From Gammaproteobacteria bacterium (GTDB taxonomy: Bacteria; Pseudomonadota; Gammaproteobacteria; Steroidobacterales; Steroidobacteraceae), in NCBI GenBank assembly GCA_947452065.1, contig CANGBB010000001.1:124001-188000 (forward strand): a DNA stretch of 64,000 nt, in the 5' to 3' direction. How positions within the stretch are numbered: the stretch's first letter is position 1; each line of letters starts with the position of its first letter. This document shows, piece by piece, positions 8,241 through 45,794 of this stretch. A program made the translations under genes and the position numbers. The notes beneath the pieces were generated by a model that was given only the letters and a program-made list of their open reading frames with translations, did no database searches and was not told the DNA's origin.

Positions 8241-9875
8241 ATGTTGAAGCGTACAAAGATTGGCATCGTTGGTTCTTCGCTGCTGTTGGCCGGCTATCTG
8301 GGCGCCCAGAATGCAGGCGGGCAGGGCGGACAGGGCATGCAGGCTGGCGGCATGGGCGCCGCTTTGCAGTATGGTGAATCAGTCGACCCTTCGAAGGTGA
8401 CCCACCCGGCACCCTCCAACAGCGGCCTGGGTGATCACAAGCGTGGCACCAATGACCCGCTGTTCTTTGCGCAGGAATTGCTCGGTCGTCCGACCGACAA
8501 GTCCATCACGGTCAACGCCGGCTCCTACAAGCCGCTGGAGATCTACTACGAGTACGGCACCAAGTCCGGCACCTACACGGGCAAGACGGCCCCGGTGCAG
8601 TTGCCCGCCAACGAGCCGGTCGATGTGCTCATCGACGGCCTCAAGGGCAACACGCAGTACTTCTACCGCATGCGCTATCGTGAGCCGGGCGGCAAAGAGT
8701 TCACCGCACGTGCCGAACACTCGTTCTACACGCAGCGCGCTCCGGGCAGCACCTTTACCTTCACGGTGCAGTTCGATCCCCACATGGACGAGCGCTCGGA
8801 TGAAGAAGCCTATCGGATGAGCATGGAGAACATGCTGGCCGACAAGCCGGACTTCATGATTGACGTCGGCGACAACTTCTTCGTCGACAAGCTGCAGCAA
8901 AAGACTGCAGAAACTGTTGAGGGCCGCGTGCAACTGCTGCGCTCCTACTACGACATCCTCAATCACTCGGCCACGCTGTATCTCGGCATGGGCAACCATG
9001 AAGGTGAGAAGGGCCTGACTGGCGGTGGCGGCGCGGCTGGCGGTGGAATGGGTGCCGCGGCAGGCACGACCACTGTTCAGGGCATGAGCGGTGCCGGCGG
9101 TCCGGCGGCGGCGTCTGGCAACCAGCAGCCGCTGGGTGTGCTCGCGGCGCTGGCACGCAAGCGCTACATCCCGAACCCGTCGCCCGATGGTTTCTATACG
9201 GGCAGCAGCCGCGTGGAGCCCATCGTCGGCATCCGCGAGGCCAACTACGCGTGGACCTGGGGTGATGCCACTTTCATCATGCTCGATCCGTACTGGAACC
9301 ATCCGGTGGCTCCGGAAATGTCTGGCGATTGGGCGCTGACCCTCGGTCGCGAGCAGTATGAGTGGCTGAAGAAGACGCTCGAGACCAGCAAGGCGAAGTA
9401 CAAGTTCGTATTCCTGCACAACCTCATCGGCGGTCTCGACATGGACGGCGCCATGCGTGGCGGTGTTGAAGTCGCCAAGTATCTGGAGTGGGGTGGCTAC
9501 AACCTCGACAATACCTGGGGCTTCGACAAGGCCCGTCCGGGTTGGGCGAAGCCGATCCATCAGTTGCTCGTCGAGAATCACGCGACGATCATCTTCCACG
9601 GCCACGATCACACGTATGCCAAGCAGGATCTGGATGGCATCGTCTATCAGGCCGGCCCGCAGCCGAGTGCTAGCAGCACCGATCTGGGCGGACGTGACAA
9701 GCAGTACAACTATCTGCACGGCACGGTGCTGGGCGGTACGGGCTACATTCGTGTCCGTGTCTCGCCGACCGAAGTGAAGGCGGACTATGTACAGACTTGG
9801 GTGCCGTCCAAGCAGACCGCCGAGCATCGCAACGGCATGGTCGGTGACACCTACACCATCAAGGCCGCTAAGTAA
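8241..9875 (+). CDS. Secreted PhoD/purple-acid-type metallophosphatase, paralog 1
   Basis: This 544-residue exported protein has a signal peptide at residues 1-22 (cleavage near YLGAQ) and then a Gly/Gln/Met-rich linker (GGQGGQGMQAGGMGA). A fibronectin-III-like domain about residues 80-155 ends NTQYFYRMRYREPGG, as in purple acid phosphatases. A calcineurin-like phosphoesterase domain follows with QFDPHMD, IDVGDNF, MGNHEGE, FLHN and FHGHDHTYA, the expected two-metal ligands. A ~40-residue Gly/Met/Ala insertion comes directly after GNHE. The RBS AGGGGA precedes the ATG. Substrate is unknown; phosphomono- or diester hydrolysis is family inference. The next gene is its paralog. Confidence 0.85.
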   Translation: MLKRTKIGIVGSSLLLAGYLGAQNAGGQGGQGMQAGGMGAALQYGESVDPSKVTHPAPSNSGLGDHKRGTNDPLFFAQELLGRPTDKSITVNAGSYKPLEIYYEYGTKSGTYTGKTAPVQLPANEPVDVLIDGLKGNTQYFYRMRYREPGGKEFTARAEHSFYTQRAPGSTFTFTVQFDPHMDERSDEEAYRMSMENMLADKPDFMIDVGDNFFVDKLQQKTAETVEGRVQLLRSYYDILNHSATLYLGMGNHEGEKGLTGGGGAAGGGMGAAAGTTTVQGMSGAGGPAAASGNQQPLGVLAALARKRYIPNPSPDGFYTGSSRVEPIVGIREANYAWTWGDATFIMLDPYWNHPVAPEMSGDWALTLGREQYEWLKKTLETSKAKYKFVFLHNLIGGLDMDGAMRGGVEVAKYLEWGGYNLDNTWGFDKARPGWAKPIHQLLVENHATIIFHGHDHTYAKQDLDGIVYQAGPQPSASSTDLGGRDKQYNYLHGTVLGGTGYIRVRVSPTEVKADYVQTWVPSKQTAEHRNGMVGDTYTIKAAK

Positions 9876-9908
9876 TTGGCCGCCGCCGGCCCCAGAGGAG
9901 AGTTGAGT

Positions 9909-11507
9909 ATGCGTACCGAATCAATCTGGGTGGCCGGCGGTGTGGTGGCCACAGTCCTGTTGTCTCTGTCGACCGGCTTGTCATCCGCCCAGGTGGGGGA
10001 TGCAGCGTCGGCAGCCAGCGGCAACGGGATGGGTGGCGGGAAGGGCGCTGGCATGACAGCCGGTGCGGCAGCGGCCGGAGCCGGCATGGCGGCTGGGACT
10101 GGTAAAACCAGCGCCCCGGATACGGCATTCACCCAGATCTTGGGACGTCCGACAGATCATTCGATCGCAGTCAGTCTGTTGTCGCCCACCAATATCGAGG
10201 CGTATGTCGAGTACGGTGAGAGCGCCGGCAACTATTCGGGCCGCACGGCGGTCACCAGCATCCAGTCGGGCAAGCCCACCGAGATCACGGTGCAGGGCCT
10301 GAAGCCGAATCGCCAGTATTTCTATCGCATCCAGCAGCGTGCCGCCGGCGGCAGCGCATACACCGCTGGTGCCGAGCAGGATTTCTATACTCAGCGGGCG
10401 CCCGGTAGCACATTCAGCTTCGGTGTTCAGGGTGACTCGCATCCGGAACGTCTGGGCAGGATGTACAACCCTGAGTTGTATGTGCGCACCATGCAGCAGG
10501 TGCGTGCTGCGAACCCGGACTTCTACATCATGCTGGGCGACGACTTTAACGTCGATCCGCTCTACAACGCGGGCAATCTCAACACCGCGGGTATCGCCAG
10601 CCTGTATGCCAACCAGCGGCATTACTTGGGCCTGATGGCGAGCACGGTGCCGCTGTTCCACGTCAACGGCAATCACGAGCAGGCCGCCGCGCATTCGCTG
10701 GACGGCACGCCGAATAGTCCGGGTGTGTTGGCCGGAATCGGCCGTAATGCCTATCTGCCACTGCCTGCGCCCGATGATTTTTACAGCGGTGACAAACAGC
10801 CGGTGGAGTTCGTGGGCCTGCGTCGTGACTATTACGCGTGGACCTGGGGTGATGCGCTGTTCGTCACCATCGATCCTTACTGGCATTCTCCGGTTCAGGT
10901 GGATGCCGGAATCGGCGGTCAGGCTGGTCGTGCCGCTGAAGGTAAAGAAGGCAAGAACGCCATGGCCCGCGATGGCTGGGCCGCCAGCATGGGTGACGAG
11001 CAGTATCAGTGGCTCAAGACCACGCTGGAACAGAGCAAGGCGAAGTACAAGTTCGTCTTCGCCCATCACGTGTTGGGCACCGGACGTGGTGCCGTGGAAG
11101 TCGCCGACCTCTACGAGTGGGGTGGCAAGAACCAGCAGGGTGTGTGGGAGTTCGACAAGAAGCGCCCGGGCTGGGCCATGCCGGTGCACCAGCTCATGGT
11201 GAAGAATGGCGTGACCATCTTCTTCCAGGGCCACGATCACCTTTTCGCCCGACAGAGCAAGGATGGCCTCGTCTATCAGGAAGTGCCGAATCCTGCCGAC
11301 GACACCTATACCATCTTCAACAAGGATGCCTACAAGTCCGGTGACATTCTCGGCAATGCCGGTTACCTTCGAGTGACGGTGTCGCCTGAAAGCGCCAAGG
11401 TCGATTACGTCCGTTCGTGGCTACCCAAGGACGAGACCGCCGGACACAAGCAGGGCGAGGTGGCATTCTCTTACACGGTGTCGCCGACGGGGCTTGCCAA
11501 GAAGTAG
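9909..11507 (+). CDS. Secreted PhoD/purple-acid-type metallophosphatase, paralog 2
   Basis: This 532-residue paralog of the preceding gene begins at ATG 9909, behind the RBS GAGGAG. An upstream TTG in frame is less likely. The signal peptide (about residues 1-25, ending LSSAQ) is followed by a Gly/Met/Ala linker (GNGMGGGKGAGM). The Fn3-like domain contains NRQYFYRIQQRAAGG. The phosphoesterase domain has QGDSHPE, IMLGDDF, NGNHEQA, FAHHVLG and FQGHDHLFA. Compared with paralog 1 the Gly/Met insertion after GNHE is missing. The two proteins share closing phrases such as WGDA, KAKYKFVF and RPGWA, so this is a tandem duplication. Substrate unknown. Confidence 0.84.
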   Translation: MRTESIWVAGGVVATVLLSLSTGLSSAQVGDAASAASGNGMGGGKGAGMTAGAAAAGAGMAAGTGKTSAPDTAFTQILGRPTDHSIAVSLLSPTNIEAYVEYGESAGNYSGRTAVTSIQSGKPTEITVQGLKPNRQYFYRIQQRAAGGSAYTAGAEQDFYTQRAPGSTFSFGVQGDSHPERLGRMYNPELYVRTMQQVRAANPDFYIMLGDDFNVDPLYNAGNLNTAGIASLYANQRHYLGLMASTVPLFHVNGNHEQAAAHSLDGTPNSPGVLAGIGRNAYLPLPAPDDFYSGDKQPVEFVGLRRDYYAWTWGDALFVTIDPYWHSPVQVDAGIGGQAGRAAEGKEGKNAMARDGWAASMGDEQYQWLKTTLEQSKAKYKFVFAHHVLGTGRGAVEVADLYEWGGKNQQGVWEFDKKRPGWAMPVHQLMVKNGVTIFFQGHDHLFARQSKDGLVYQEVPNPADDTYTIFNKDAYKSGDILGNAGYLRVTVSPESAKVDYVRSWLPKDETAGHKQGEVAFSYTVSPTGLAKK

Positions 11508-16618: not shown

Positions 16619-18059
16619 AGGGCGCCGCCGCGCCGCCGCCCATCCCGCCAGCCATTCCCCCGGCCATGCCGCCTGCAGCAGCGTCGGCGCCGCCCATGCC
16701 GCCTGCACCACCGCCACCCATGCCACCCGCTTCAGAGGCGGGGCCCGGGTTGGGGTTGACCGTTGTCATCTGCGCATTCACTGCCGTCAGATAATCGGTG
16801 AGCCGCTTGTCCAGTTCGGCCACCTTTTCCGGCATCTTGCTCGACAGATCGTTCTGTTCAGCCAGATCCTTGGACAGGTCGTAAAGCTTCCTGTCTCCGG
16901 TTTCGTAGACGCGGATCAGCTTGTAGTTGCCAAGGAAGATGGCCGACGCCGGGCTCTGCGGATCGTAGTGGGGCACATGCACCACAAACTCCTCGCGCGG
17001 GCGCTGCACGGTACCAACGCCACCATGCAGTAGCACCGGTGCAATGTTGCCGCCTTCAACTCCTGCGGGCAGCGCTGCCTTGACATTGGCCAGGGCTGAA
17101 ATCGTCGGGAACAAATCCAACTGCGACACGCGCACGTGCGAATAGGAGCCGGCTTTCACGCCCGGTCCGGCGATGAGGAACGGCACGCGGATGCCACCTT
17201 CCCAGACCAGACCCTTTGCGCCAGATAGCGGCTGGTTGTTCTTCGCGCCGATCGTGCCGTGGTCGGTGCTGTAGATCACATAGGTGTTCTCAGCCAGGCC
17301 CAGCTTCTTGATGGCATCCAGCACTTGGCCAATCGTCTTGTCGGTGAAGGCGGTGTCGCTATCGATTTCCGCATCGGTCTGCGGGCCTTGGTTCGGATAG
17401 TGCGACATCTGCAAATAGAAGGGCTTGTGGGCCTGCGACTGGCGCTGCATGAAGGCAATGCCCAGCTCCGTGATAGAAGTGGCCTGCGTCGGATTCGGCG
17501 AGCGACTGTTCTCCGGTCCGCCATTGTTGTTGGCGCCATCGGTTTCATCGAACCCATGAGATTTGGGGCTGACATTGCCCAGATGCCACTTGCCGAAATG
17601 GGCCGTGGCATAGCCTGCGGTCTTCAACTGCTCGGCAATGGTTGTTTCAGCTGCAGGCAGTTCCAGCACGATCTTCGGCGGAATCAGCTTGGTGCTGATG
17701 GCGCCGCTTTCCGTGCCATTGCTGACGAAAGTCATGTGCAGGGCAGCCGGACTGCGTCCGGTCAACAATCCTGCACGCGACGGCGTGCAACGCGGGGAGG
17801 GTGCATAGCCGTCCGAGAAGGTCATGCCCGAGGCGGCCAGACGTTCGATGTTGGGCGTCGCGACCCGGGTTCCTTTGGAGTTGGGGACGCGCTCATCCAT
17901 CTGCGCCGAGGAACTGGTCCAGCCCGAACCCTCGCCATAAATCACGACGAAGTTGGGCTGAGAAGGTGCGCCGGCCGCCTGTGCGTTCAGACTAGGACCG
18001 AATACGCTCAGCAGCGACACTGCCAGGCTCAAAACGGGAAGGCTTCTTTTCACAGTCAC
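16617..18059 (-). CDS. Exported sulfatase-like protein 1 with Gly/Met-rich tail
   Basis: The 480-residue product belongs to the alkaline phosphatase/sulfatase superfamily. A signal peptide (residues 1-27, NAQA) precedes PNFVVIYGEGSGW. Canonical sulfatases have two Asp metal ligands in this first strand (ADDLGW-like); here they are replaced by Gly-Glu. The formylglycine motif C-T-P-S-R followed by AGLLTGR is intact. The later metal motif reads STDHG instead of SDNG, and the GGIRVPF segment is normal. The last ~45 residues are GGMGGGGAGGMGG-like repeats. Loss of the first metal ligands makes ordinary sulfatase activity doubtful. Divergent from yceI across a 220-base gene-free gap. Confidence 0.85.
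   Translation of the reverse strand: MTVKRSLPVLSLAVSLLSVFGPSLNAQAAGAPSQPNFVVIYGEGSGWTSSSAQMDERVPNSKGTRVATPNIERLAASGMTFSDGYAPSPRCTPSRAGLLTGRSPAALHMTFVSNGTESGAISTKLIPPKIVLELPAAETTIAEQLKTAGYATAHFGKWHLGNVSPKSHGFDETDGANNNGGPENSRSPNPTQATSITELGIAFMQRQSQAHKPFYLQMSHYPNQGPQTDAEIDSDTAFTDKTIGQVLDAIKKLGLAENTYVIYSTDHGTIGAKNNQPLSGAKGLVWEGGIRVPFLIAGPGVKAGSYSHVRVSQLDLFPTISALANVKAALPAGVEGGNIAPVLLHGGVGTVQRPREEFVVHVPHYDPQSPASAIFLGNYKLIRVYETGDRKLYDLSKDLAEQNDLSSKMPEKVAELDKRLTDYLTAVNAQMTTVNPNPGPASEAGGMGGGGAGGMGGADAAAGGMAGGMAGGMGGGAAAP
16619..16740 (-). repeat. Gly/Met/Ala low-complexity tract (C-terminal tail of sulfatase-like protein 1)
   Basis: Imperfect repeats of a GGCATGGGCGGC-like unit (seen as GCCGCCCATGCC on the + strand) encode GGM, GGMGG and AGG steps up to the stop codon. 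The same unit occurs in eleven other genes of the island. Confidence 0.8.
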
Positions 18060-18279: not shown

Positions 18280-19023
18280 GTGAAATCTCGAGCCAAGAAA
18301 ATCGTCGCCTTTACGCTGTCCTCCGCTTGCGCCATCGGCGTTGGCTTGGCGCTCGCTCAAAGCCCGCCGCCGGACGGAATGGGACCGGGTGCTGAAGGCG
18401 GTATGGGCGCAGGCATGGGTGGCGGCGATGCCGCTGGCATGGGCGGCGGTGGCCCCCGCGTCATCGAGCCGCTGACCAGCAAACTGTCGGAAGTCCATTC
18501 CGGTGATTACGTCCTGGACCCCGATCATGGCCGTATCATCTGGAATGTCAGCCACCACGGCTTCTCGATTTTCTCGGCTGTGTTTTCGAAGATCGATGCC
18601 AAGCTGAAGTTCGATGCCGCTGACGTGACCCGCAGCCAGCTCGATGCCACCGTGAACATGAAGAGCGTGGGCTCGCTGATTCCTGAGTTCGACGTCAAGC
18701 TCAACAGCCCCGTCTGGCTCAATACGGACAAGTATCCGACCTCGCGTTTCAAGTCGACCAAGATTGAGGTCACGGGACCGAATAAGCTGCGCGTGACAGG
18801 CGATCTAAACTTCTACGGCACCACCAAGCCCGCCACGATGGATGTCACCTTCATCCAGGCCGGCAACGTGTCGCCGCCGGCTGGTGGTTATCGCGTGGGC
18901 TTCAATGGCGTCATGGTCATCAAGCGCAGCGAGTGGGGCATGGAAAAGTCCACCGTGGGCGATGAAGTGACTCTGAATCTGGAAGCAGAGTTCACGCTGC
19001 CGGGCGCTGCCGCGGCGCATTGA
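18280..19023 (+). CDS. YceI-family periplasmic protein with Gly/Met-rich N-terminal linker
   Basis: This 247-residue exported protein starts at GTG 18280 (CGGGAG upstream). The signal peptide ends about ALAQ and is followed by a ~30-residue linker with GGMGAGMGGGD and GMGGGG. The YceI lipocalin-like barrel follows: YVLDPDHGRIIWNVSHHGFS, FKSTKIEVTG, LNFYGTTKPATMDVTF and FNGVMVIKRSEWGM are typical. YceI proteins bind isoprenoid or other amphipathic molecules and are exported; the ligand here is not predictable. The Gly/Met segment is not part of the family. A strong bidirectional terminator follows. Confidence 0.9.
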   Translation: MKSRAKKIVAFTLSSACAIGVGLALAQSPPPDGMGPGAEGGMGAGMGGGDAAGMGGGGPRVIEPLTSKLSEVHSGDYVLDPDHGRIIWNVSHHGFSIFSAVFSKIDAKLKFDAADVTRSQLDATVNMKSVGSLIPEFDVKLNSPVWLNTDKYPTSRFKSTKIEVTGPNKLRVTGDLNFYGTTKPATMDVTFIQAGNVSPPAGGYRVGFNGVMVIKRSEWGMEKSTVGDEVTLNLEAEFTLPGAAAAH

Positions 19024-19116: not shown

Positions 19117-20505
19117 TTACGGATTCCCCGCGGCACCCGCTTGAGCGGCTGCCATACCGCCGGCTGCCATGCCGCCACCCGCCATGCCGCCGGTGGTGCC
19201 ATCGCCTGCAGCCATGCCACCGCCCGCATCACCGCCTTTTCCGCTCTCAAGCTCGGCGAGTTTTGCCTCACCCATCGACTTGCGAACATGGTTCTTGATG
19301 TCGGCCAGCAGGCTGTTGGCGAGCGCCGGCTGTTGCGCAGCCAGATTGTTTGATTCGAGCACGTCCTTCTCGAGGTCGTACAGGAAGCTCTGCTTCGTAT
19401 CCCAGTAGTAGAGCAACTTGTAGTCGCCTTTGCGGATGGCCGTCTGCGGGTGAGGCACCTCAACATCGTGATGCCAGATCATGTAATCAATCGGGCGCGT
19501 CACCGAGCCCTTGCCCCCATTGAGCAGCACCGGCCTCCAGCTGCCGCCCTCAGCACCCTTTGGCAGCGCGAAGCCCGGAGAGGCCAGGTCCACCACCGTC
19601 GCGTAAATGTCATAGCCTGTCACCGGGGCATTGGCGTACGCCTTGGACTTGATGCCCGGGCCACTAACCACCAGCGGCACGCGCAGACCACCTTCGTCGA
19701 GCAGGGCCTTGGCACCCTTCAGAGCCGCCGTCTTCATACCGTTGTCAGACATGTAGATGACGTAGGTGTTGTTCGCGATACCGAGTTTCTCCAACTCCTT
19801 CATCACCACGCCCATGCAGGTATCCAGATCCTCAGTCATCGCCTGCTGCAAAGCGTTGGGACCACTGTACTTCTTCAGCGTGGCGGCCAGTGCCTGAGGC
19901 TTGGAGTGCACGGCGTAGTAAGAGAGCTGCAGATAGAAGGGATGTCCGTCCTTCACTTGCTGGTCCATGAAAGCCACGGCGCGGCGGGTGATCCCGAAGG
20001 ACTGCTTCGGATCATTCGGATCCGTGGTGTCACCATCCTCATTCAATGTGATGCCATCGCTGGCGTCATAACCCATCGACGCCGGTGTCTGCGGCCACTG
20101 CCACTTGCCAAAATGGGCTGCGCGATAGGCCGGGTTGGCACGCTTGAGTGTGTTGGCCAGTGAATCTGTCACTGGGGCACTCCAGTTCACATGCCACTTG
20201 TCGATTGAATTCAGCGTTAGCGTGCTGCGACCCATCTGGTAGGCGGCACGGGACCCTTCGCACTTTGGATGAGACGCGTAGGCCTGGGAGAAAATCACGC
20301 CTTTTGAGGCAATGCTTTCCAGCGTAGGCATCTTGTAGGTCGACGAATGGCTGAAGTCCTTGCCGGGGATCATCTCCACCGGAGTGCCGTCCAAGCCCTG
20401 ATCGTCAATGAAGAGGATGAGGAAGTTTGGGCTGGCTGTCGCCGCGGCCGACGCCGTCTTGGCCCCGAGCATCAAGAGCAATAGCCCATAGCGCAGTATT
20501 CTCAT
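19117..20505 (-). CDS. Exported sulfatase-like protein 2 with Gly/Met-rich tail
   Basis: The 462-residue product is a second sulfatase-superfamily protein. A signal peptide (residues 1-21) precedes PNFLILFIDDQGLD, which keeps the paired Asp metal ligands. The later MSDNG motif is also normal, as is GGLRVPLVVSGPG. The formylglycine site reads C-E-G-S-R rather than the consensus C-x-P/A-x-R, so recognition by a formylglycine-generating enzyme is uncertain. The C-terminal ~40 residues are GGDAGGGMAAG/GGMAGGGMAAGGM repeats. It is transcribed divergently from the first TonB receptor, suggesting shared regulation. No sulfatase-maturing enzyme lies in the window. Substrate unknown. Confidence 0.85.
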   Translation of the reverse strand: MRILRYGLLLLMLGAKTASAAATASPNFLILFIDDQGLDGTPVEMIPGKDFSHSSTYKMPTLESIASKGVIFSQAYASHPKCEGSRAAYQMGRSTLTLNSIDKWHVNWSAPVTDSLANTLKRANPAYRAAHFGKWQWPQTPASMGYDASDGITLNEDGDTTDPNDPKQSFGITRRAVAFMDQQVKDGHPFYLQLSYYAVHSKPQALAATLKKYSGPNALQQAMTEDLDTCMGVVMKELEKLGIANNTYVIYMSDNGMKTAALKGAKALLDEGGLRVPLVVSGPGIKSKAYANAPVTGYDIYATVVDLASPGFALPKGAEGGSWRPVLLNGGKGSVTRPIDYMIWHHDVEVPHPQTAIRKGDYKLLYYWDTKQSFLYDLEKDVLESNNLAAQQPALANSLLADIKNHVRKSMGEAKLAELESGKGGDAGGGMAAGDGTTGGMAGGGMAAGGMAAAQAGAAGNP

Positions 20506-20657: not shown

Positions 20658-20748
20658 AGTTTGCTGTGTCGTCAAGAAATGTCCGCGAGAAATTTTTTTT
20701 CACGGCGTTTTCTGGTCGGCTTGGGTCAATCTTTTGGGGGATTATATT

Positions 20749-24339: not shown

Positions 24340-25842
24340 ATGCGCCTTAAATCAAACGGTCTCGCGTTACTGCCGGTGGGGCTCAGTGCTCTCATCGGAT
24401 TTGGTGTGTTGCAGGTTTCGGCGCAGAACGCGCCAGCGGCTCCGGCCGGTGAGGGTATGGCGGCTGCTCCAGCCGGCATGGGTGGCGGAGGCGGGCAGGC
24501 CACGGGTCCGATGACCCCGTGTCCGGGAGCAATCACGAATACGCGGGCCTACACCGATGTGTTCAAGGCCGAGTTCGCCACTCTCAAAGGCACGCAGAAC
24601 AATGGCGCCTATGGCGAATCCGTGGGAGGCGGAGACTTCGATCGCGACGGCTACACCGACATTGCGGTCGGTGCTACAGGCGAGGAGAAGGTTTATATCT
24701 ACCGCGGTACCAAGGACGGCATTTCAAGCACACCCGCAGTAGTGTTGAGCGGTGAAAAGGAAAAGAGTGAGTTTGGTCGCTCGATGACGGTTGGCGATGT
24801 CAACGGTGACGGTTACGCCGACGTGATCGTGGGCGCTCACAGCTTCGATGGTGGACTCGGCGCGCATCAGGGAAAGTTGTATGTCTTCCTCGGTGGCCCG
24901 AAAGGGGTCAGCGACAAGCCTGCGCAGGGCATCGTCGGTGAGCATAAGGGCGACGAATTCGCGCGCACCTTTTTCGTGGCCGATATGGATGGAGATGGCA
25001 TCAACGATCTGCTGACCGGCGCCTCCGGTTACAACGGTGATCAGACTTACCAGGGCAAGGCGTATGTCTATCGCGGCACCAAGCAGGGTTTGGAGACCAA
25101 GCCCTGGTTCACGGCTGTCGGCGAGCACAGCGATGATGAGTTCGCGCGTTCAGTGACGGCTGCCGATCTCAATCACGATGGGCACACGGATCTGATCGTC
25201 GGTCAGCCTGGTCTGACAGGTGGTGGTCGGGCAGCCGGGGTCACTATTCCGGGCACGATGCATGTGTTCTATGGATCGGCCAAGGGATTGTCGCCGACAG
25301 CCGCATTCAAGGCGCCGGGCGAGATGGTCAAGGGTCACCTTGGCGAGGGACTGTCGGCGGTCGGTGACGTCAACCGCGATGGCTTTGCGGATGTTGCCAT
25401 CGGTGCCCGCGATTTCTCATGTGGAGACGGTGCGCCCGGAAAGATTTACCTGTACTTGGGTGGCCCTCAAGGTCTGTCGGCTGACCGGATGTGGCCGCTG
25501 CCTGGTAAAGGCGGTTCGGGCGTTGGGCGCACCATGGCCGCAGCCGGTGACTTGGATGGCGACGGCTTTGCCGACTTCCTCTCTGCTGCTCCGATGGGCA
25601 CCAGCGAGCGCGGCGCGGGCGTCTATATCTTCTTCGGTGGTGCCAAGACCTGGGGCAAAGATCCGGTGGTCATTACATCGGAGGAATCCAACAGTGGTAT
25701 TGGTTTTGGCGTCTCCGCAGCGGGTGACATCAACAAAGATGGAGCGCCTGATATTGTGATCGGTGCGCCAACGGGTGGTGGTAACCGGCAGGGCTGGGTA
25801 CGCGTCTATTATGGCAAGGCTGCAACTTCAGGCCGTAAGTAA
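24340..25842 (+). CDS. Exported FG-GAP/integrin-alpha-like beta-propeller protein
   Basis: This 500-residue protein starts at ATG 24340. The signal peptide (MRLKSNGLALLPVGLSALIG, cleavage near VSAQ) is followed by a Pro/Ala/Gly/Met linker (GEGMAAAPAGMGGGGG). Seven FG-GAP blades follow, each with a calcium-binding D-x-D/N-x-D-G loop, for example DFDRDGYTD, DVNGDGYAD, DMDGDGIND, DLNHDGHTD, DVNRDGFAD, DLDGDGFAD and DINKDGAPD. Such propellers act as extracellular adhesion or ligand-binding scaffolds. It lies between TonB receptors 1 and 2, suggesting a surface partner, but the target is unknown. Confidence 0.85.
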   Translation: MRLKSNGLALLPVGLSALIGFGVLQVSAQNAPAAPAGEGMAAAPAGMGGGGGQATGPMTPCPGAITNTRAYTDVFKAEFATLKGTQNNGAYGESVGGGDFDRDGYTDIAVGATGEEKVYIYRGTKDGISSTPAVVLSGEKEKSEFGRSMTVGDVNGDGYADVIVGAHSFDGGLGAHQGKLYVFLGGPKGVSDKPAQGIVGEHKGDEFARTFFVADMDGDGINDLLTGASGYNGDQTYQGKAYVYRGTKQGLETKPWFTAVGEHSDDEFARSVTAADLNHDGHTDLIVGQPGLTGGGRAAGVTIPGTMHVFYGSAKGLSPTAAFKAPGEMVKGHLGEGLSAVGDVNRDGFADVAIGARDFSCGDGAPGKIYLYLGGPQGLSADRMWPLPGKGGSGVGRTMAAAGDLDGDGFADFLSAAPMGTSERGAGVYIFFGGAKTWGKDPVVITSEESNSGIGFGVSAAGDINKDGAPDIVIGAPTGGGNRQGWVRVYYGKAATSGRK

Positions 25843-33941: not shown

Positions 33942-35264
33942 TTACGAGACCGGGCTGTAGGTCAGGTCGGTGCAGTTGTAGGCCTCGTAAGGCGTCTGAG
34001 AGATCTCGACCGTATCCTGACCACTGAATGACTCAGTCAGGTACAGCGGATCTTCACCGGTCCAGCTGCGGGTCAGGGTCTTGCCATCGCTGCTCATGGT
34101 GAATCGTTCCACGAGGTGATAGCGATCGCTGTGCATGACGCCATTGCCGATCGGACCGGGGAGGAAGTTGGCGGTGTCGACCACCAGTGTGTCGCCCTCC
34201 CACCGGCCGATGGAGTGGCCCCACTTGCTGGGCTTGGCATCCTTCGGATGGGCTGCCATGTTCAGGTACACGGCGCGAGAGATGTCCATGTACCCGTATT
34301 CGATCTTAAGGCTGTCTTTGGTCTGCTGGATCCGGTTCACGTGCTGGTCCATTGTCCAGTCGGTGAACATGTTTGTTGTGGCGCAGGTCTTGCCAGCAGC
34401 AGCCCCGCCGCGGGCGTTGGCGGTGTTGGCTGCGGCATAGGCCGCTGCTGCCGCCACGCCGGCTGCCGAGGGCTTATAGAGCCCGTAGCGGCCACTGGAG
34501 TTGACCGTCTCACCGGGGACGCCCATGCCCGCTGCGGGGGCGACAGCCCCGCTAGAGGGGCCTGACGCGCGTGGAGCGCCGGCCGTCGAAGCGCCGGTGC
34601 CCATGCCGCCACCGCGCTCGGCTGCGGCATTCGGCGCCTCATGCGGGGTGGTCGCGGCGAAGCTGGCCGGCGCCTTGGAGAAGTCACCGAAATTGACGAC
34701 GGTGGTGGCGGCCAGCTTGGTGGCTGGCGGTGGAGCGCGTCCGGCCGCTACCGCTGCGATGACCGCGGCCGTGTTGGTGCCGTTGTTCACCGCATTCAGC
34801 TTTTGCGGGGCGCCCCAATTGCCGGCCAGATTCGGTTTGCCATCTGTGGTCCGCAAGGGACGCTTGACCTCGCCCTTATCGGCGGTCGCGAGCTGTTCAT
34901 AGCGCTCGATGATGCGACCGTCCTGGAAGGTGACGGTCTCGACGTAGCACTTGTGGGGATCATCACGGTGCGGCGCGGCGACGATGTACAGCTGCGTGCC
35001 GGGAGAGAACATCGCCTCAGTCCAGCCGGAGCGTTTGAGCAGTGCACCGGCGCGCATTTCGCAGGCCCAGGTGTCTTCACCGCCCGAATTGTTCTTAACC
35101 ACCAGCGTTACCCATGAGTGCGGGTTGACTAGGTGCATTTGCTTCACCACGCCGGAGATTTTGATGGTCTTAGACTCATCAAAAGTACCTGCTACGCCGT
35201 GGTGCGCGGCTGCGGGGCCAGCCATCGCGATGGCCGATACAAGGAAAATCGCTGGTCTTGACAT
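33942..35264 (-). CDS. Two-domain exported protein: DUF6152 plus GRWEGDTLVVDT domain
   Basis: This 440-residue protein has a signal peptide ending PAAA, so the predicted mature protein begins His-His-Gly. Residues ~22-125 are DUF6152 (KISGVVKQMHLVNPHSWVTL, with the NPH motif). A linker then contains PNLAGNWG and a Gly/Met/Ala stretch (AERGGGMGTGAS, APAAGMGVPG). The C-terminal ~150 residues contain HSIGRWEGDTLVVDTANFLPG and TRSWTGEDPLYLTESFSG. This second domain is related to the stand-alone protein at 15415-16152, so here two genes that are neighbours elsewhere in the island are fused. No known enzyme activity. The start has GGAG upstream. Confidence 0.78.
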   Translation of the reverse strand: MSRPAIFLVSAIAMAGPAAAHHGVAGTFDESKTIKISGVVKQMHLVNPHSWVTLVVKNNSGGEDTWACEMRAGALLKRSGWTEAMFSPGTQLYIVAAPHRDDPHKCYVETVTFQDGRIIERYEQLATADKGEVKRPLRTTDGKPNLAGNWGAPQKLNAVNNGTNTAAVIAAVAAGRAPPPATKLAATTVVNFGDFSKAPASFAATTPHEAPNAAAERGGGMGTGASTAGAPRASGPSSGAVAPAAGMGVPGETVNSSGRYGLYKPSAAGVAAAAAYAAANTANARGGAAAGKTCATTNMFTDWTMDQHVNRIQQTKDSLKIEYGYMDISRAVYLNMAAHPKDAKPSKWGHSIGRWEGDTLVVDTANFLPGPIGNGVMHSDRYHLVERFTMSSDGKTLTRSWTGEDPLYLTESFSGQDTVEISQTPYEAYNCTDLTYSPVS

Positions 35265-35873: not shown

Positions 35874-36266
35874 TCAGCCGCCGCCCATGCCACCGCCCAT
35901 ACCGCCACCGCCACCACCCATGCCGCCGCCCATGCCGCCTTCGGCCGCGGGAGCTGCTGCAGCACTGGAGCTTGAGCTGGAGCTGGCGGCGCCTTCGGTG
36001 GCGTCACGTCCAGCCTTGTACTCGGCGAAGTTCAGCTTGCCGTCGCTGTTGGTGTCGTACTTTTCGAAGTTGCCTTCGGTGCGAGTGGTCTTGACTTCAT
36101 CCTTGCTCAGGAAGCCGTCGTTGTTGGCATCGTGCTGTTTGAACCACTCTTCGGCAGTCGTAGCAGTCGGTGCCATGCCGGCGCCGGCCGGCTGACCGGC
36201 TGCAGGTGCTTGAGCAATGGCGTTGGCGGCCAGCAGCATGCCGGCAGTCGCAATGATCATCTTCAT
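35874..36266 (-). CDS. Small exported EF-hand protein with Ser/Ala and Gly/Met-rich tail
   Basis: This 130-residue protein begins at ATG 36266 (MKMIIATAGMLLAANAIAQA, a signal peptide). Two EF-hand loops follow: DANNDGFLSKDE and DTNSDGKLNFAE, each with the spacing for Ca2+ binding. The tail is a run of Ser and Ala, then GGMGGGMGGGGGGMGGGMGG to the stop, one of the purest copies of the tract found across the island. It is probably a periplasmic or surface calcium-binding protein. The exact role is unknown. The gap behind it (36267-36410 lies downstream of 36411's stop) has no gene. Confidence 0.82.
   Translation of the reverse strand: MKMIIATAGMLLAANAIAQAPAAGQPAGAGMAPTATTAEEWFKQHDANNDGFLSKDEVKTTRTEGNFEKYDTNSDGKLNFAEYKAGRDATEGAASSSSSSSAAAAPAAEGGMGGGMGGGGGGMGGGMGGG
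35877..35940 (-). repeat. Gly/Met low-complexity tract (tail of the EF-hand protein)
   Basis: About 20 codons composed only of Gly and Met, with Met spaced three or more Gly apart. The DNA repeats a GGCATGGGCGGC-like unit. Confidence 0.85.
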
Positions 36267-37019: not shown

Positions 37020-38165
37020 TCAGGGAGGGCCCATGCCGTCGCCGCCACCCATGCCGCCGCCACCGGCGCCCATGCCGTCGCCGCCGCCCATACCGCCGCC
37101 GCCCATGCCGCCACCCGGCGGGCCACCCTGGAAGCTGCCCGTGCGGCAGTAGACCGTGTTGACCATTTCGCCGTTGGTGGTGAAGGACTGCTCGGCAAAG
37201 TCCCAGCAATTGGCCTGGGCCGCTGGCTTGTACTTGAAGGAGTAGGTCTTACCCTGCCAGACGTATGTCATCAGGCGGGTACCGTCTTTCGCGGTGACCA
37301 GCTTGAGATCCTTAACGCCGCCACCCGGCTTGCGGCCGGTGATCTTGCCACCGCCACCGCCTTCCTTGGTTAGCGGCGGGACATGCGCCGCGAGGCTCAT
37401 GTCGAAGTTTCCGTCGAGGCACTGAATGATGTACGGGGGCGTTACAGAGGTGTGGTAGCGCCAGCCGTAGAGGCTGTCTGCCTGACCATTGCAGGCATCC
37501 AGCTTGCCCTTGGCGATGGCCGAGCCGTCCGGATTACTGTTGCCGTAGATCGGATAGCCGTCGAAGGCCCAGCCAATGATCGCGGCCGGATCCTTCTTGT
37601 TCTTCATCATGTCGATCATGCAATTCGGTGCGACGTGGTAGTGGTAGTCGTCGCCACGGCCCGAGTGGCCGCCGCAGATGTCCAGTTCGCCCGTCAGCAG
37701 CGTGTCCGCCTTCGGGTCGTAGTGGTACAGATCGTCATCACCCTGCGAGGTGTAATCGTAAATCGGCACACCATTCACGGCGACGCCCAGCGCTGCATCG
37801 ATCGAAATCGGCTTGCTGTTACGGCTCGGCGAGAGCGTGATCGGGGAGTTGTAACCCGGTGCCGGGATGGGTACCTGATCGTTGGTGCCCGTGATGCCAT
37901 CCATCAGAGGATGATCCGGATAGGTATCGCCAAAGAGGCGACCGTACTTCGGGTCATCACAGTTCACCGTCACCTTGTCGGCGAAGCCGGCATCGACGAC
38001 AGACTTCTTGATGGACGCGCAGCGGGCAGCCGGAGCGATGGTGCCGGCGCCTTCAACGGCGGGAGTGGTTGCCGACATTGTCAGTGCGGCCACTGACAGG
38101 CCCGCCACGGTCATGGCGACGAGACCGACTGCACGTGAAGCAGGAGCAGAAAGGAAGTTAAGCAT
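37020..38165 (-). CDS. Exported YHYH-domain protein with Gly/Met-rich tail
   Basis: This 381-residue protein has a signal peptide or anchor at residues ~10-35. The YHYH domain is recognised by DDLYHYDPKADTLLTGELDI, CGGHSGRGDDYHYHVAPNC, IIGWAFDGYPIYG and LYGWRYHTSVTPPYIIQC. These are rich in His, Tyr and Cys and probably bind metal or form disulfides. The domain is widespread but has no established function. The C-terminal ~35 residues are GGGMGGGGMGGGDGMGAGGG-like. The final TGA is 6 bases from the next gene (36411-37013). Confidence 0.83.
   Translation of the reverse strand: MLNFLSAPASRAVGLVAMTVAGLSVAALTMSATTPAVEGAGTIAPAARCASIKKSVVDAGFADKVTVNCDDPKYGRLFGDTYPDHPLMDGITGTNDQVPIPAPGYNSPITLSPSRNSKPISIDAALGVAVNGVPIYDYTSQGDDDLYHYDPKADTLLTGELDICGGHSGRGDDYHYHVAPNCMIDMMKNKKDPAAIIGWAFDGYPIYGNSNPDGSAIAKGKLDACNGQADSLYGWRYHTSVTPPYIIQCLDGNFDMSLAAHVPPLTKEGGGGGKITGRKPGGGVKDLKLVTAKDGTRLMTYVWQGKTYSFKYKPAAQANCWDFAEQSFTTNGEMVNTVYCRTGSFQGGPPGGGMGGGGMGGGDGMGAGGGGMGGGDGMGPP
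37023..37125 (-). repeat. Gly/Met low-complexity tract (tail of the YHYH protein)
   Basis: Repeated GGMGGGDGM and GGGMGG steps precede the stop. Four Met residues are flanked by Asp-Gly or Gly, similar to the EF-hand and Sel1 tails. Confidence 0.8.
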
Positions 38166-39417: not shown

Positions 39418-40491
39418 TCAGGGGGCAGTGGCCGGTCCGACCAGATAGTCCAGCGCTTCCTTGTTGCCGATCGTCAGCAGGAAGCCCAGCTCGTCGCCCA
39501 TGTACCACGCCTTGTCCCACTTGTCGCCGTCGAACTCGGCGAAGCCGATTTCCCAGTCATGCAGGTCGTGGCCAGAAGCCGGAATGCCATACAGCGGCCC
39601 GGTGTTCTTGGCAGTCAGACGGAACTGGAACATGCCCTGATTGCCTTCCGAAATGGCGGTGCCCAGCATGTCCTGCCGGCCGCTCATCGACTGGCCGTGG
39701 CTGCCCTGAACGTTGAGCTCCTTGCCGCGCTCAACGATGTTGTCGGCGCCGCCGCGCAGCAGGTTGGCATACGGTCGGCCGTTGAAGGCCTTCAGCGTGT
39801 CGACCAGATCAGCAGGCTTGTTCTTGGCCTTGTAAGCCAGCAGCAGCTTGACGTGGCGATATTCAGGGGTGTCCAGCGGCTTGGCGATCATCTCCTGAAG
39901 AGCGTCGTCGAAGGAGCGGGTGTCGTTGTAGACCGGCGGAGGATTGAGCTTGCCATCCTGACGGGCCGGCAGGCGTGCGCTGAGCTGACGCAGCAGCTTG
40001 GCTTCCTCAGCCATCATCCAGCCCTCGGTGATCTTGCCGTTCTTCAGCTTGAAGACCGCAGCCCCTTCGATTTCGATCGGCTTGCCGGTGGCCGGAATGC
40101 CATACAGGTTGCCCTTGTGCGTGCCCTTGATGCGGATCGTGGCGGCGACCGTGTCGCCCTGGCCGAGGATTCGCGTGATGGTGTTGCTGCGATCAGCGAT
40201 GGCTACCGCGTCCGGCTGCATGGCTTTGGACAGCTTGGGATCGTCGGCGTTGAACTTCAGGTTCTCAAATTCATGGCGCAGCAGCTTGTAGTCCGCGGCC
40301 TGTGTTTGCTTGGCCACGTCCGCAAACTTCGACGTGCCGAGCGCTTCGAGATAACGCTGGACAACGGCTTTGTTGGCTGCGACAGCCGATGCATCCGCAG
40401 CGGCGGCAGCTGGCAATGAGTGCCCGACAAGCAGGGCGGCTGCAGCGCAGACCCCCAGGGAGCGAATCAGGACAGAACGGCGAGTGGACAT
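39418..40491 (-). CDS. Exported SnoaL-like / NTF2-fold protein
   Basis: The 357-residue product starts at ATG 40491 (GGAGAAGAGG upstream); a longer frame to 40536 lacks support. The N-terminus MSTRRSVLIRSLGVCAAAAL is a signal, possibly Tat-like, cleaved after AAA. Residues ~35-165 are a SnoaL-like fold (VVQRYLEALGTSKFADVA, then GIPATGKPIEIEGAAVFKLK), known from polyketide cyclases and related hydrolase/isomerases. A second, weaker NTF2-like half contains GPLYGIPASGHDLHDWEIGF, suggesting a duplicated domain. The substrate is unknown. Confidence 0.72.
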   Translation of the reverse strand: MSTRRSVLIRSLGVCAAAALLVGHSLPAAAAADASAVAANKAVVQRYLEALGTSKFADVAKQTQAADYKLLRHEFENLKFNADDPKLSKAMQPDAVAIADRSNTITRILGQGDTVAATIRIKGTHKGNLYGIPATGKPIEIEGAAVFKLKNGKITEGWMMAEEAKLLRQLSARLPARQDGKLNPPPVYNDTRSFDDALQEMIAKPLDTPEYRHVKLLLAYKAKNKPADLVDTLKAFNGRPYANLLRGGADNIVERGKELNVQGSHGQSMSGRQDMLGTAISEGNQGMFQFRLTAKNTGPLYGIPASGHDLHDWEIGFAEFDGDKWDKAWYMGDELGFLLTIGNKEALDYLVGPATAP

Positions 40492-43767: not shown

Positions 43768-43810
43768 CAAATCAGGGCAACATCACCTGTTCTAGAGAGT
43801 GGTAAATCAC

Positions 43811-44851
43811 ATGAAGATCATCAGTTCTGTAGTTGGCTCATTGCTGTTGGTCGGTGCAATGCCGGCCGCCTATGCGCACCATGGTTGGGGCGGTCAGTAC
43901 GACACCACCAAGGAAGTCGAACTCTCCGGCGTTATCAAGTCAGTGCAGTGGACCAACCCGCACGTGACCTTCAAGCTGCTGGTCGACGGCGGTAAGCCGA
44001 CTGAGAAGCTCTGGACAATCGAGAGCAACTCCGTCAGCGCGCTGGTCCGGATGGGCATCGAAAAGACCAACATCCCAGTTGGCAGCACCGTGAAGGTGTC
44101 GGGCTTCGGTCCGGTGTCGGGTGCCAACTTCGGCCTGTTCATGAACCACATGCTGCTGCCCACTGGCAAGGAAGTGGTCTTCCTGCGTGGCGCCGCGCCG
44201 CGCTGGTCGGATGAGACCATCGGCAACGATGACCGCCTGCACGGCAAGGTCGTCGAGGCTGACATCAACAAGCGTCCGTCCACGGTCTTCTCAGTCTGGA
44301 CGACGGTCTACAACGACAACAATAGCCACGGTATGCACCTGATCAGCGGCCCGGCTGCGGCTGGCATGGGTGGTGGCGGTGCCGGCATGGCTCCAGCAGC
44401 AGCTCCTGCGGGAAATGCTCCGGCTAAGGCCGACGACACAATTGTCGTTTGCACTCCGAAGGCTATGACGCAGGTGATGGGTTCGCCGTACCCGATCCAG
44501 CTGATCGAGGATGCGAAGAACAAGAAGGTCATCCTCAAGGTCGAGGAAAACGACACGGTGCGAGAAATCAACATCACCAGTGCGCCTCATAAGGCCGTCG
44601 GTGCACCGAGCCTGGTTGGCTACTCGACGGGTGTCCTGGACGCCAGCAAGAAGAAGCTGACCGTGACGACCTCGAACCTGGTGGGTTCGCCGGACATCGT
44701 CTACACGGAAACCTTCGAGCTGTCGGATGACCGCAATCGTCTGAACTACACGACGAAGGCGAGCAACAGCGAGACGGTCATGGGTCGTTACTGGCAGTAC
44801 CAGCCGGGCGCCTTCGTTGGACCGTACGGCTGCACCAACGCCAAGAAGTAA
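43811..44851 (+). CDS. DUF6152 family exported protein (long form) with Gly/Met segment
   Basis: The 346-residue product starts at ATG 43811 (a GTG 12 bases earlier has poorer spacing to AGAGAGTGG). The signal peptide ends AYA, so the predicted mature protein begins His-His-Gly. The DUF6152 core LSGVIKSVQWTNPHVTFKLL has the NPH motif. The middle contains AAGMGGGGAGMAPAAAPAGN. The C-terminal half includes a domain of unknown fold (IVYTETFELSDDRNRLNYTT, ending GPYGC) and two cysteines. It is the third DUF6152 protein of the island. No catalytic motif is evident; metal binding is a hypothesis. Confidence 0.78.
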   Translation: MKIISSVVGSLLLVGAMPAAYAHHGWGGQYDTTKEVELSGVIKSVQWTNPHVTFKLLVDGGKPTEKLWTIESNSVSALVRMGIEKTNIPVGSTVKVSGFGPVSGANFGLFMNHMLLPTGKEVVFLRGAAPRWSDETIGNDDRLHGKVVEADINKRPSTVFSVWTTVYNDNNSHGMHLISGPAAAGMGGGGAGMAPAAAPAGNAPAKADDTIVVCTPKAMTQVMGSPYPIQLIEDAKNKKVILKVEENDTVREINITSAPHKAVGAPSLVGYSTGVLDASKKKLTVTTSNLVGSPDIVYTETFELSDDRNRLNYTTKASNSETVMGRYWQYQPGAFVGPYGCTNAKK

Positions 44852-44886: not shown

Positions 44887-45002
44887 GATCAATATTGGCC
44901 GGGGTGCCGCAAGGTGCCCCGGCCATTTACCCGAAGTTGGTACATGCCTGCGTTGTGCGGCGGGATGTTGACCGCTTATTTGGTTAATTAGGAGAACTCA
45001 AT

Positions 45003-45794
45003 ATGACCAAGTCTTTCTTCAAGCCAGTGGCTGCAGTCTCTGCGGTGCTGGCGTGCGCCTCGATCGGACTGATCGCCCAGGCGGCGACTGCTCCGGCCGA
45101 TAGCTCGGCCCTGAAGACCACCGGCATCTACATCACCTATGACGGTCGTAAGGGCGTCGTGCAGGATGGTGGCAAGGCGGCTGACTGGCTGGTTGCAGCG
45201 GGTCAGGGGGACGCCGTTGCGGCCTATAACTTAGGCGTGCGCGCCGACATCGGCGATGGCATTCCTGCGGACAAGGCTGAAGCAGCCAAGTGGTATCGTC
45301 AGGCTGCTGACAAGGGCCATGACTATGCGCAGTCGAACCTCGGCATGCTCTACGACAAGGGTCAGGGCGTGGCCAAGGATTCGGTCGAGGCTGTGAAGCT
45401 GTATCGCCTGGCCGCCGATGCGGGCGTGGCGCCGGCACAGACCAACCTCGGTGCGCACTACGGCAACGGTGATGGCATTGCTCGCGATGACGTGCAGGCC
45501 TACCTCTGGCTGAGCCTGGCGACCGCTCAGGGCAACGTGACTGCTTCGCGTGGTCTGGAGACCGTGACCAAGCGTCTTACTCCGGCTCAGTTGGCCGAAG
45601 GCAAGAAGCTGGTTGCTGAGTGGAAGCCGAAGTCAGCAGCGGCCGCAGCACCTGCGGCAGCTCCTGCTGCGCCTGCAGCCGATGCTGAAGCCGGCATGGG
45701 CGGCGGCATGGGCGGCGGTGGTGGCGGCGGCATGGGCGGCGGTGGCGGCGGCATGGGCGGCGGTGATGCCGGCATGGGCGGCGGCGCTCCCTAA
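45003..45794 (+). CDS. Exported Sel1-repeat protein with Gly/Met-rich tail
   Basis: The 263-residue product has a signal peptide (MTKSFFKPVAAVSAVLACAS, cleavage near AQA). Sel1-type TPR-like repeats follow, e.g. DAVAAYNLGVRADIGDGIPA, EAAKWYRQAADKGHDYAQSN and VKLYRLAADAGVAPAQTN, each with the A-x-x-LG and G-x-G-V-A phrases. The last ~45 residues are Ala/Pro-rich, then GMGGGMGGGGGGGMGGGGGG and so on to the stop. Sel1 proteins are scaffolds for protein complexes. In this island the partners may be the other tailed proteins. Confidence 0.85.
   Translation: MTKSFFKPVAAVSAVLACASIGLIAQAATAPADSSALKTTGIYITYDGRKGVVQDGGKAADWLVAAGQGDAVAAYNLGVRADIGDGIPADKAEAAKWYRQAADKGHDYAQSNLGMLYDKGQGVAKDSVEAVKLYRLAADAGVAPAQTNLGAHYGNGDGIARDDVQAYLWLSLATAQGNVTASRGLETVTKRLTPAQLAEGKKLVAEWKPKSAAAAAPAAAPAAPAADAEAGMGGGMGGGGGGGMGGGGGGMGGGDAGMGGGAP
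45697..45791 (+). repeat. Gly/Met low-complexity tract (tail of the Sel1 protein)
   Basis: The tandem DNA unit GGCATGGGCGGC(GGT) is repeated about five times with slip-like length changes, coding for GMGG and GGG runs. It is the longest copy on the + strand. Confidence 0.85.

What the first reader, a model, noticed from the sequence alone, without database searches (positions are those of the whole stretch)
8241..45794. Twelve unrelated exported proteins share a Gly/Met-rich GMGGG-like segment
Seen in sequence: both phosphatases (8310-8370 and 9017-9126; 9999-10110), sulfatase-like 1 and 2 tails (16619-16740, 19120-19235), YceI linker (18370-18460), FG-GAP linker (24430-24520), PEBP tail (26500-26609), the 440-residue DUF6152 fusion (34515-34640), EF-hand tail (35877-35940), YHYH tail (37023-37125), 346-residue DUF6152 protein (44362-44430) and Sel1 tail (45690-45791). 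The families are unrelated and none normally has this segment. It is absent from the three TonB receptors and from the housekeeping genes. Its position varies (after the signal, internal, or at the end), so it is not a classical sorting signal such as PEP-CTERM. Inference: a shared module for metal (Cu(I) via Met) binding, for assembly of a surface complex, or a mobile coding repeat (GGCATGGGCGGC unit) spreading between genes.
Basis: partly seen in the sequence, partly recalled or inferred. Interest (0 to 1): 0.8.

Follow-up and report, generated by a model that had tools for sequence, protein, structure and literature searches.

The report
Shared glycine-methionine arms on exported proteins
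About a dozen unrelated, mostly exported proteins of one uncultured bacterium carry the same kind of floppy glycine-methionine arm, which selection has kept as protein and a few related genomes share, so it looks like a common part whose job is still untested.

Summary
Of the 12 proteins named, 11 carry a Gly/Met arm; the PEBP tail is Gly-rich with one GMG. Arms with two or more G/A-flanked Met occur in 11 of 27 island genes, 0 of 24 other window genes and 2 of 365 control genes, neither Gly-rich.

In the one family tested broadly, YHYH, 4 of 80 relatives have the arm. Arms share no more DNA than synonymous shuffles, so no mobile repeat. Three genomes of another genus carry arms on the same families, usually at the same position, on scattered contigs; close orthologs were not found in congeners. 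Aligned arms keep 77% identity within families, 64% between, at equal codon divergence. So the arm is maintained as protein.

Canonical copper motifs are absent: 0 of 125 Met spacings under four. Best reading: a disordered, weakly sticky or elastic tether, like GroEL tails or abductin in composition. Function is inferred. Gly-Met stretches also occur in other gammaproteobacteria, on other proteins.

The parts
8313..8363 (+). N-terminal Gly-Met arm just after the signal peptide of metallophosphatase A (gene 8241-9875)
   Evidence: full arms at the same place in homologs of G029 and G166, none in a G165 copy, one GMGG in another G166 copy
9012..9119 (+). second Gly-Met insertion inside the phosphatase domain of metallophosphatase A, after GNHE
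   Evidence: absent from the two aligned g16 homologs and from the paralog, so found only in this copy so far
10017..10103 (+). N-terminal Gly-Met arm of metallophosphatase B (gene 9909-11507)
16620..16733 (-). C-terminal Gly-Met arm of sulfatase-like 1 (gene 16617-18059)
   Evidence: own-genome paralogs at C5 and C7 and g16 homologs also armed
18373..18453 (+). N-terminal Gly-Met arm of the YceI protein (gene 18280-19023)
   Evidence: armed in the three g16 orthologs, 76-77% identical in the domain
19120..19245 (-). C-terminal Gly-Met arm of sulfatase-like 2 (gene 19117-20505)
24448..24507 (+). N-terminal Gly-Met linker of the FG-GAP protein (gene 24226-25842, start perhaps 24340)
26496..26609 (+). 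Gly-rich C-terminal tail of the PEBP protein (gene 25893-26612), weak in Met
   Evidence: the G166 ortholog has a short Ser/Gly tail without the Gly-Met pattern
34521..34619 (-). Internal Gly-Met linker of the DUF6152 fusion protein (gene 33942-35264)
   Evidence: internal Gly-Met linkers in g16 homologs
35877..35942 (-). C-terminal Gly-Met arm of the EF-hand protein (gene 35874-36269)
   Evidence: same position in G029, G165 and G166
37023..37127 (-). C-terminal Gly-Met arm of the YHYH protein (gene 37020-38165)
   Evidence: 4 of 80 relatives have it; residues 350-381 have pLDDT below 50
44360..44398 (+). Internal Gly-Met linker of the second DUF6152 protein (gene 43799-44851)
45687..45791 (+). 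C-terminal Gly-Met arm of the Sel1-repeat protein (gene 45003-45794)
   Evidence: same position in G029 and G165 and in G166; a neighbouring Sel1 gene in G166 lacks it
39418..40491 (-). SnoaL-like exported protein: no arm in this copy, but its homologs in G029 and G166 end in a Gly-Met arm

Best explanation
A Gly-Met arm is a short disordered segment (about 13-42 residues; collected arms average 55-62% Gly and 15% Met, rest mainly Ala, Asp, Glu, Pro) added to the N-terminus, C-terminus or a domain junction of a set of unrelated, mostly exported proteins. Shown: presence, enrichment, sharing by the same families in a second genus, absence from most relatives of one family, and protein-level conservation. 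Inferred: it works as a flexible sticker-and-spacer tether. Met, the only common side chain in it besides Ala and the acidic ones, gives weak, spaced, multivalent contacts (arm to arm, or to hydrophobic patches of a common partner), which hold these enzymes and binding proteins together or at the cell surface; oxidation of Met could weaken the contacts.
For: Enrichment: 11 of 27 island genes, 0 of 24 other window genes, 2 of 365 control genes. Same families armed at scattered places in three genomes of another genus: 9 of 9 armed proteins in 20-kb stretches chosen by the strict pattern and 16 of 22 in further loci chosen by a looser pattern (2 of the 16 match the arm-less SnoaL protein) match island proteins. 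Arms sit at termini or junctions: after the signal peptide (phosphatases, YceI, FG-GAP, cytochrome c'), at the end (sulfatases, YHYH, Sel1, EF-hand, SnoaL) or between domains (DUF6152). In the YHYH model residues 281-340 average pLDDT 94-96 and the arm falls below 50 (whole model 71.6). Met makes up 22% (island) and 34% (g16) of non-Gly residues in segments chosen for Gly alone, against 3% in controls and 8% in a tiny congener sample. 0 of 125 Met-Met spacings are below four; 500 shuffles gave a mean of 52.7 and a minimum of 38. Arms of one family keep 77% identity, against 64% between families, at equal codon divergence (0.583 and 0.584). Precedents: Gly-Met chaperonin tails, flexible with part polyproline II content, Met contacts to a client suggested by simulation (PMC12571646, passages); abductin consensus GGFGGMGGGX, random-coil elastomer (PMC13052691, passages); Met-rich Pbp1 region that self-associates and is dissolved by Met oxidation (PMC8394241, passages).
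Against: No partner, complex or localisation is shown; no common upstream motif appeared in a simple screen. Arms come and go: one G165 phosphatase copy has none and a G166 copy has one GMGG; the G166 PEBP tail lacks it; the SnoaL copies of this genome lack what G029 and G166 have. Eleven of 20 predicted exported island proteins have no arm. Columns with Met matched in 66% of cases within families and 53% between, so single Met positions are loosely kept. No aromatic residues, which many sticker domains use. The same review reports that Met-to-Ser mutants of Pbp1 still formed droplets in vitro (PMC8394241, passages). The minimum spacing of four could be a relic of a four-codon founder unit. 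Export is predicted by a crude rule only: it of 11 armed island genes, 6 of 8 armed genes elsewhere in the genome and 18 of 31 in g16; at least three of the misses start at a Met in or beside the arm (L212, L217, L230).
Confidence: 0.4

Rival explanations
1. Oxidant sink: the exposed Met residues are sacrificial scavengers that protect exported enzymes and are repaired by a periplasmic methionine sulfoxide reductase, like the periplasmic peptide MrpX but fused to many proteins.
For: Met-rich, disordered, mostly exported. Molybdopterin oxidoreductase family PF00174, to which MsrP belongs (membership recalled), is found in G000, G029 and G166. MrpX and BcrX are periplasmic Met-rich scavengers linked to MsrPQ-type genes (PMC8315932, passages).
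Against: PF00174 is equally present in congeners without the tandem pattern (5 of 6 tested) and was not found in G165, which has arms and is 96% complete. A sink need not keep family-specific arm sequence or a minimum Met spacing. The hits were not checked to be MsrP.
Confidence: 0.17
2. Soft-metal binding: Met thioethers chelate Cu(I) or Ag(I) for storage or for metallation of the enzymes.
For: Several Met in a flexible chain can bind Cu(I) (general knowledge); many carriers are metal- or heme-dependent families (phosphatase, sulfatase, EF-hand, cytochrome c').
Against: No His or Cys in 1,075 arm residues (the extension rule admitted only ten residue types, so this is partly built in). No M-x-M or M-x-x-M: 0 of 125 spacings below four. 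A multicopper-oxidase-like outgroup protein looks quite different, with His and dense Met (L261; identity read from the sequence). In peptide M6G9 the spaced GGGM methionines were not the ones needed for gold binding (PMC13323719, passages).
Confidence: 0.12
3. Sorting or attachment tag: the arm is read by a dedicated secretion, retention or cross-linking machine.
For: Gly precedes 162 of 165 Met (partly built into the definition); most carriers in this genome are predicted exported, and the set is shared by few genomes of the family.
Against: Position varies (N, internal, C) and there is no transmembrane helix plus basic tail as in PEP-CTERM or GlyGly-CTERM (features recalled; arm sequences). 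No candidate machine was found or searched for.
Confidence: 0.13
4. Near-neutral low-complexity drift: Gly-rich spacers that happen to tolerate Met in these lineages.
For: Arms vary in length and are gained and lost. Gly-Met stretches of other kinds are scattered through the class.
Against: Met is 22-34% of non-Gly residues in Gly-selected segments against 3% in controls; carriers are largely predicted exported proteins of a recurring set of families; within-family arm identity exceeds the between-family null at equal codon divergence.
Confidence: 0.12
5. Mobile coding repeat: a DNA unit such as GGCATGGGCGGC copies itself between genes.
For: The clustering in this genome. Own-genome arm pairs with 18 or more shared bases: 15, shuffles 10.6 on average, up to 17; repeated in-frame 12-mers within arms 23, shuffles 10-29: slightly high, inside the range.
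Against: Longest shared DNA between arms: mean 13.8 observed, 13.6 in synonymous shuffles (own genome); 12.7 and 12.5 (g16). Codon divergence within families equals that between families. Armed orthologs are scattered in g16.
Confidence: 0.03

Closest known systems
Gly-Met C-terminal tail of GroEL / mitochondrial Hsp60
   Same: Composition and length; the mHsp60 peptide AMGGMGGGMGGGMF (PMC12571646, passages) is very similar; disordered with part polyproline II content.
   Different: A chaperonin tail, in GroEL with Met every third residue; here the arms sit on many unrelated, mostly exported proteins, at either end or inside, with Met never closer than four residues. 13 of the 30 class-level loci that one search returned are GroEL tails by my reading of the sequences.
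Abductin (bivalve hinge elastomer)
   Same: Gly/Met-rich random coil with GGMGGG units (PMC13052691, passages).
   Different: An animal bulk elastomer with Phe and cross-links; here short arms without aromatic residues.
PEP-CTERM and GlyGly-CTERM sorting signals
   Same: One short module shared by many unrelated exported proteins of one genome (PMC1569441 and PMC3237569, abstract openings seen in a search listing; rest recalled).
   Different: Those are C-terminal processing signals; these arms have no membrane helix and no fixed position.
MrpX / BcrX Met-rich periplasmic peptides
   Same: Exported and Met-rich (PMC8315932, passages).
   Different: Stand-alone peptide (BcrX: MXKDX repeats) in an operon with MsrPQ-type genes; here Gly-based arms on enzymes.
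Met-rich low-complexity region of yeast Pbp1 (ataxin-2)
   Same: Met as the adhesive side chain in a low-complexity region (PMC8394241, passages).
   Different: RNA-binding protein of yeast; no sequence relation tested.
Gly-Met stretches in multiheme-cytochrome-like proteins of other Gammaproteobacteria (G339, G302)
   Same: GMGGG-type stretches on several proteins of one genome: three in G339, each with many CxxCH motifs.
   Different: One kind of carrier, some with Met every third residue and Cys nearby, not the phosphatase/sulfatase/YHYH/Sel1 set.

Membership tests
GroEL-type Gly-Met tail | C-terminal tail of a chaperonin subunit | tested here: not met
   Carriers are phosphatase, sulfatase, YceI, PEBP, FG-GAP, DUF6152, EF-hand, YHYH, Sel1 and others by Pfam
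GroEL-type Gly-Met tail | GGM repeat with Met every third residue | tested here: not met
   0 of 125 Met-Met spacings are below four
PEP-CTERM / GlyGly-CTERM type sorting signal | fixed C-terminal position with transmembrane helix and basic tail (recalled) | tested here: not met
   Arms are N-terminal, internal or C-terminal and contain no hydrophobic helix, by inspection
PEP-CTERM / GlyGly-CTERM type sorting signal | dedicated processing enzyme in the same genomes | not tested
   No such search was made
Copper-binding Mets motif | M-x-M, M-x-x-M or Met-His clusters (recalled) | tested here: not met
   0 of 125 spacings below four; no His or Cys in collected arms, partly built into the extension rule
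Copper-binding Mets motif | measured Cu(I) or Ag(I) binding | not testable with these tools
   needs peptide titration
MrpX-like oxidant sink | genetic linkage to MsrP/MsrQ | tested here: inconclusive
   PF00174 in 3 of 4 armed genomes but also in 5 of 6 tested congeners; linkage not examined, hits not checked to be MsrP
Mobile coding repeat | shared DNA between arms beyond protein composition | tested here: not met
   within the range of synonymous shuffles
Sticker-and-spacer disordered domain | intrinsic disorder | tested here: met
   YHYH arm pLDDT below 50 beside a confident C-terminal part; one protein only. The phosphatase model failed overall, mean pLDDT 35.9
Sticker-and-spacer disordered domain | self-association or common partner | not testable with these tools
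   needs experiment

The most novel reading that the evidence does not exclude
A previously undescribed envelope-assembly code: bacteria that fit many unrelated exported proteins with interchangeable Gly-Met arms, so that they co-assemble into a redox-tunable, elastic periplasmic or surface matrix of enzymes, and pass the armed gene set between genera.
Probability: 0.25. Interest if true: 0.88.

Novelty: new variant of a known kind. Interest (0 to 1): 0.68.

Why it matters
If the inference holds, bacteria have a simple way to gather unrelated exported enzymes without scaffolding domains: add a floppy Gly-Met arm. It would give a natural periplasmic or surface counterpart of Gly-Met chaperonin tails and of Met-based, oxidation-sensitive condensates, and a ready-made tag for engineering. 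Even without the mechanism, one arm type added to about a dozen proteins of unrelated families and maintained by protein-level selection in two genera is unusual. I found no description of it in the paper searches aimed at it; one search returned nothing, one search was too broad to help, and searches returned mainly chaperonin and unrelated papers. The library is open-access only.

Tried and rejected
Mobile DNA repeat: rejected. Arms ancestral to their families: rejected for YHYH. For the phosphatases, homologs outside g16 that I could read (G645, G041, g12 genomes) have no N-terminal arm, but two B-type ones have a small internal GMG patch (L342, L360). For YceI only four distant relatives could be read, without arm: weak. 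General feature of exported proteins of the genome: rejected on the sample. Common regulation: a screen of paired 4-mers in 220 bases upstream of 19 genes (PEBP included) against 345 controls found none shared by 6 or more. Link to MsrP: inconclusive. Structure of phosphatase A with its insert: failed, mean pLDDT 35.9, so the place of the second insert relative to the metal site is unknown. YHYH fold: no PDB match at E <= 0.001 and no PDB sequence match, so its fold gave no clue. No tRNA in the window. Multi-family arms elsewhere in the class: 20 stretches from 11 genomes with pattern sites show multiheme-cytochrome-like proteins, very short Gly-Met ORFs, GroEL and other single proteins, not this set; the remaining sites were not read. 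HGT of the armed set into this genome is a lead, not a result: for three genes of one locus the congeners are 77-88% identical and G029 67-75%, while 8 of 10 armed G029 proteins are 69-85% identical and the other two 48% and 63%; the sample is small and not random.
Full report
WHAT WAS CHECKED. The window is G000:C1:124001-188000 of a 2.17-Mb, 10-contig, 96%-complete genome. I listed the ORFs and translated the candidate genes, named carriers by Pfam and scored Gly-Met arms as Met residues flanked on both sides by Gly or Ala (at least one Gly), counted per 40 residues. Eleven of the 12 named proteins score 2 or more; PEBP scores 1.

CHANCE. Genes were called with a home-made codon-usage caller and signal peptides with a crude rule, so counts are approximate. 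Island (8-46 kb): 11 of 27 genes armed, 9 of 20 among predicted exported ones. Rest of the window: 0 of 24. Twenty control stretches of the same genome: 2 of 365 (1 of 82 exported), both not Gly-rich; at 3 or more, 6 of 27 against 0 of 365. The island was chosen because it is rich, so the Fisher values overstate significance; the low background and the genome-wide pattern count (39 sites, 19 in 1.7% of the genome; reversed control pattern 1 site) do not depend on that choice. An arm-blind version, choosing segments for Gly content only, gives Met as 22% of non-Gly residues in the island, 34% in g16 stretches, 3% in controls and 8% in a congener sample of only 24 residues.

ELSEWHERE IN THE GENOME. 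At all own pattern sites outside the island I read the surrounding gene; eight are armed: PepSY membrane protein, second YHYH (75% identical), three sulfatases, a phosphatase, a second EF-hand protein, and a poly-Gly protein at a contig end. The others are single GMGGG occurrences.

RELATIVES. The tandem pattern GGNATGGGNGGNGGNATGGGN occurs in 13 of 217 genomes of the family, own genome included, and in 0 of 14 congeners. Three of the 13 belong to one other genus (g16: G029, G165, G166) and hold armed versions of the same proteins: EF-hand, Sel1, phosphatase, YHYH, YceI, sulfatase, DUF6152 and SnoaL, plus cytochrome c' and the poly-Gly protein; not each family was seen in each genome. G164, also g16, lacks the strict pattern and its best YceI match is 38% identical. 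In the 20-kb g16 stretches, chosen by the strict pattern, all 9 armed proteins match island proteins; in further loci chosen by the looser pattern 16 of 22 do, 2 of them matching the arm-less SnoaL protein, and that gene caller missed further poly-Gly proteins seen. Of 19 looser-pattern sites in four congeners I fetched 9; no protein there scores 2. Orthologs of comparable identity were not found in congeners for YHYH (0 of 14), sulfatase (partial matches, best-scoring one 39%), Sel1 (partial matches), YceI (38% at best) and phosphatase (0 of at least 12 sampled).

AGAINST A NARROW DISTRIBUTION. Other family members that match the pattern do so in GroEL, secretin-like and other single proteins, but some of these look exported: an EF-hand-like protein of G167 (L067), a Met-rich protein of G178 (L061) and a lipoprotein-like protein of G199 (L062) (read by eye). 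In the class 36 of 369 genomes match; of the 30 loci returned 13 are GroEL tails, and stretches from 11 genomes show three multiheme-cytochrome-like proteins in G339, very short Gly-Met ORFs and single proteins. So Gly-Met stretches are not rare; what I did not see elsewhere is this set of unrelated enzymes sharing them. Unread sites remain.

ORIGIN OF THE ARM. YHYH is the cleanest case: of the 80 best relatives kept from 498, 76 have no arm; most end at or just after a conserved CR, some run on into another domain, and one (L130) showed no tail. The 4 with an arm come from the three g16 MAGs. For the phosphatase the series runs from none (G165 copy, G645) through one GMGG (G166 copy) to a full arm (G029, G166), all just after the signal peptide. 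The insert at 9012-9119 was seen in this copy alone.

SELECTION. Arms of different genes share no more DNA than synonymous shuffles; two of the counts are slightly high but inside the shuffle range. Gly codons are mixed: GGC 69%, GGT 22% here; GGT 46%, GGC 45% in g16; background GGC 54%, GGT 25%. Within-family arm pairs (49) have 76.6% identity and a sample of 250 between-family pairs 63.7%, with the same codon difference at conserved Gly/Ala (0.583 and 0.584). An earlier comparison without this null gave 0.76 for arms and 0.79 for domains; low-complexity alignment inflates the former, which is why the null was run. Pairs are not independent. Met-Met spacing is never below four in 125 cases. 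Arm collection required flanked Met and extended only through ten residue types, so flank and composition figures are partly built in; the spacing minimum is not, apart from spacing one.

MECHANISM. Disorder is supported for one arm. The closest characterised peptides are chaperonin Gly-Met tails (PMC12571646, passages; PMC11978752, abstract) and abductin (PMC13052691, passages); Met-based association has a precedent in Pbp1 (PMC8394241, passages). From these I infer a weak multivalent tether. Oxidant sink, metal site, sorting tag and drift remain open, with the stated probabilities.

VERDICT. I file it under no known family: the GroEL, sorting-signal, copper-motif and mobile-repeat tests each failed on a defining feature, and the oxidant-sink test was inconclusive. 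It resembles known Gly-Met low-complexity segments in composition, in a new setting.

Noticed in passing
window 20524-24168, 26775-30215, 30366-33833: Three large TonB-dependent receptor genes with similar N-termini on one strand within 14 kb; none carries an arm.
   Followed up: no
L229:2805-4031 (-), L199, L215, L186 (end of contig G000:C2): A protein with repeated Cys-containing stretches separated by very long poly-Gly runs and Gly-Met linkers, found in all four armed genomes; a candidate scaffold. No Pfam match for the G166 copy.
   Followed up: partly
window 37020-38165 (-): YHYH family: partly confident model but no PDB structural or sequence match; relatives in Myxococcales, Rhodobacteraceae and marine Gammaproteobacteria lack the arm.
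   Followed up: partly
L376, L378, L379 (G339); L265, L268: Proteins with many CxxCH motifs in other gammaproteobacterial genomes also carry Gly-Met stretches (read by eye).
   Followed up: partly
L377, L380, L381, L383, L384, L390: Very short ORFs (33-74 residues stop to stop) made largely of MGGGMGGG-like repeats in other Gammaproteobacteria.
   Followed up: no
window 8-46 kb against congeners G001-G014: The armed gene set looks absent from congeners but shared with genus g16 at high identity: possible horizontal transfer.
   Followed up: partly
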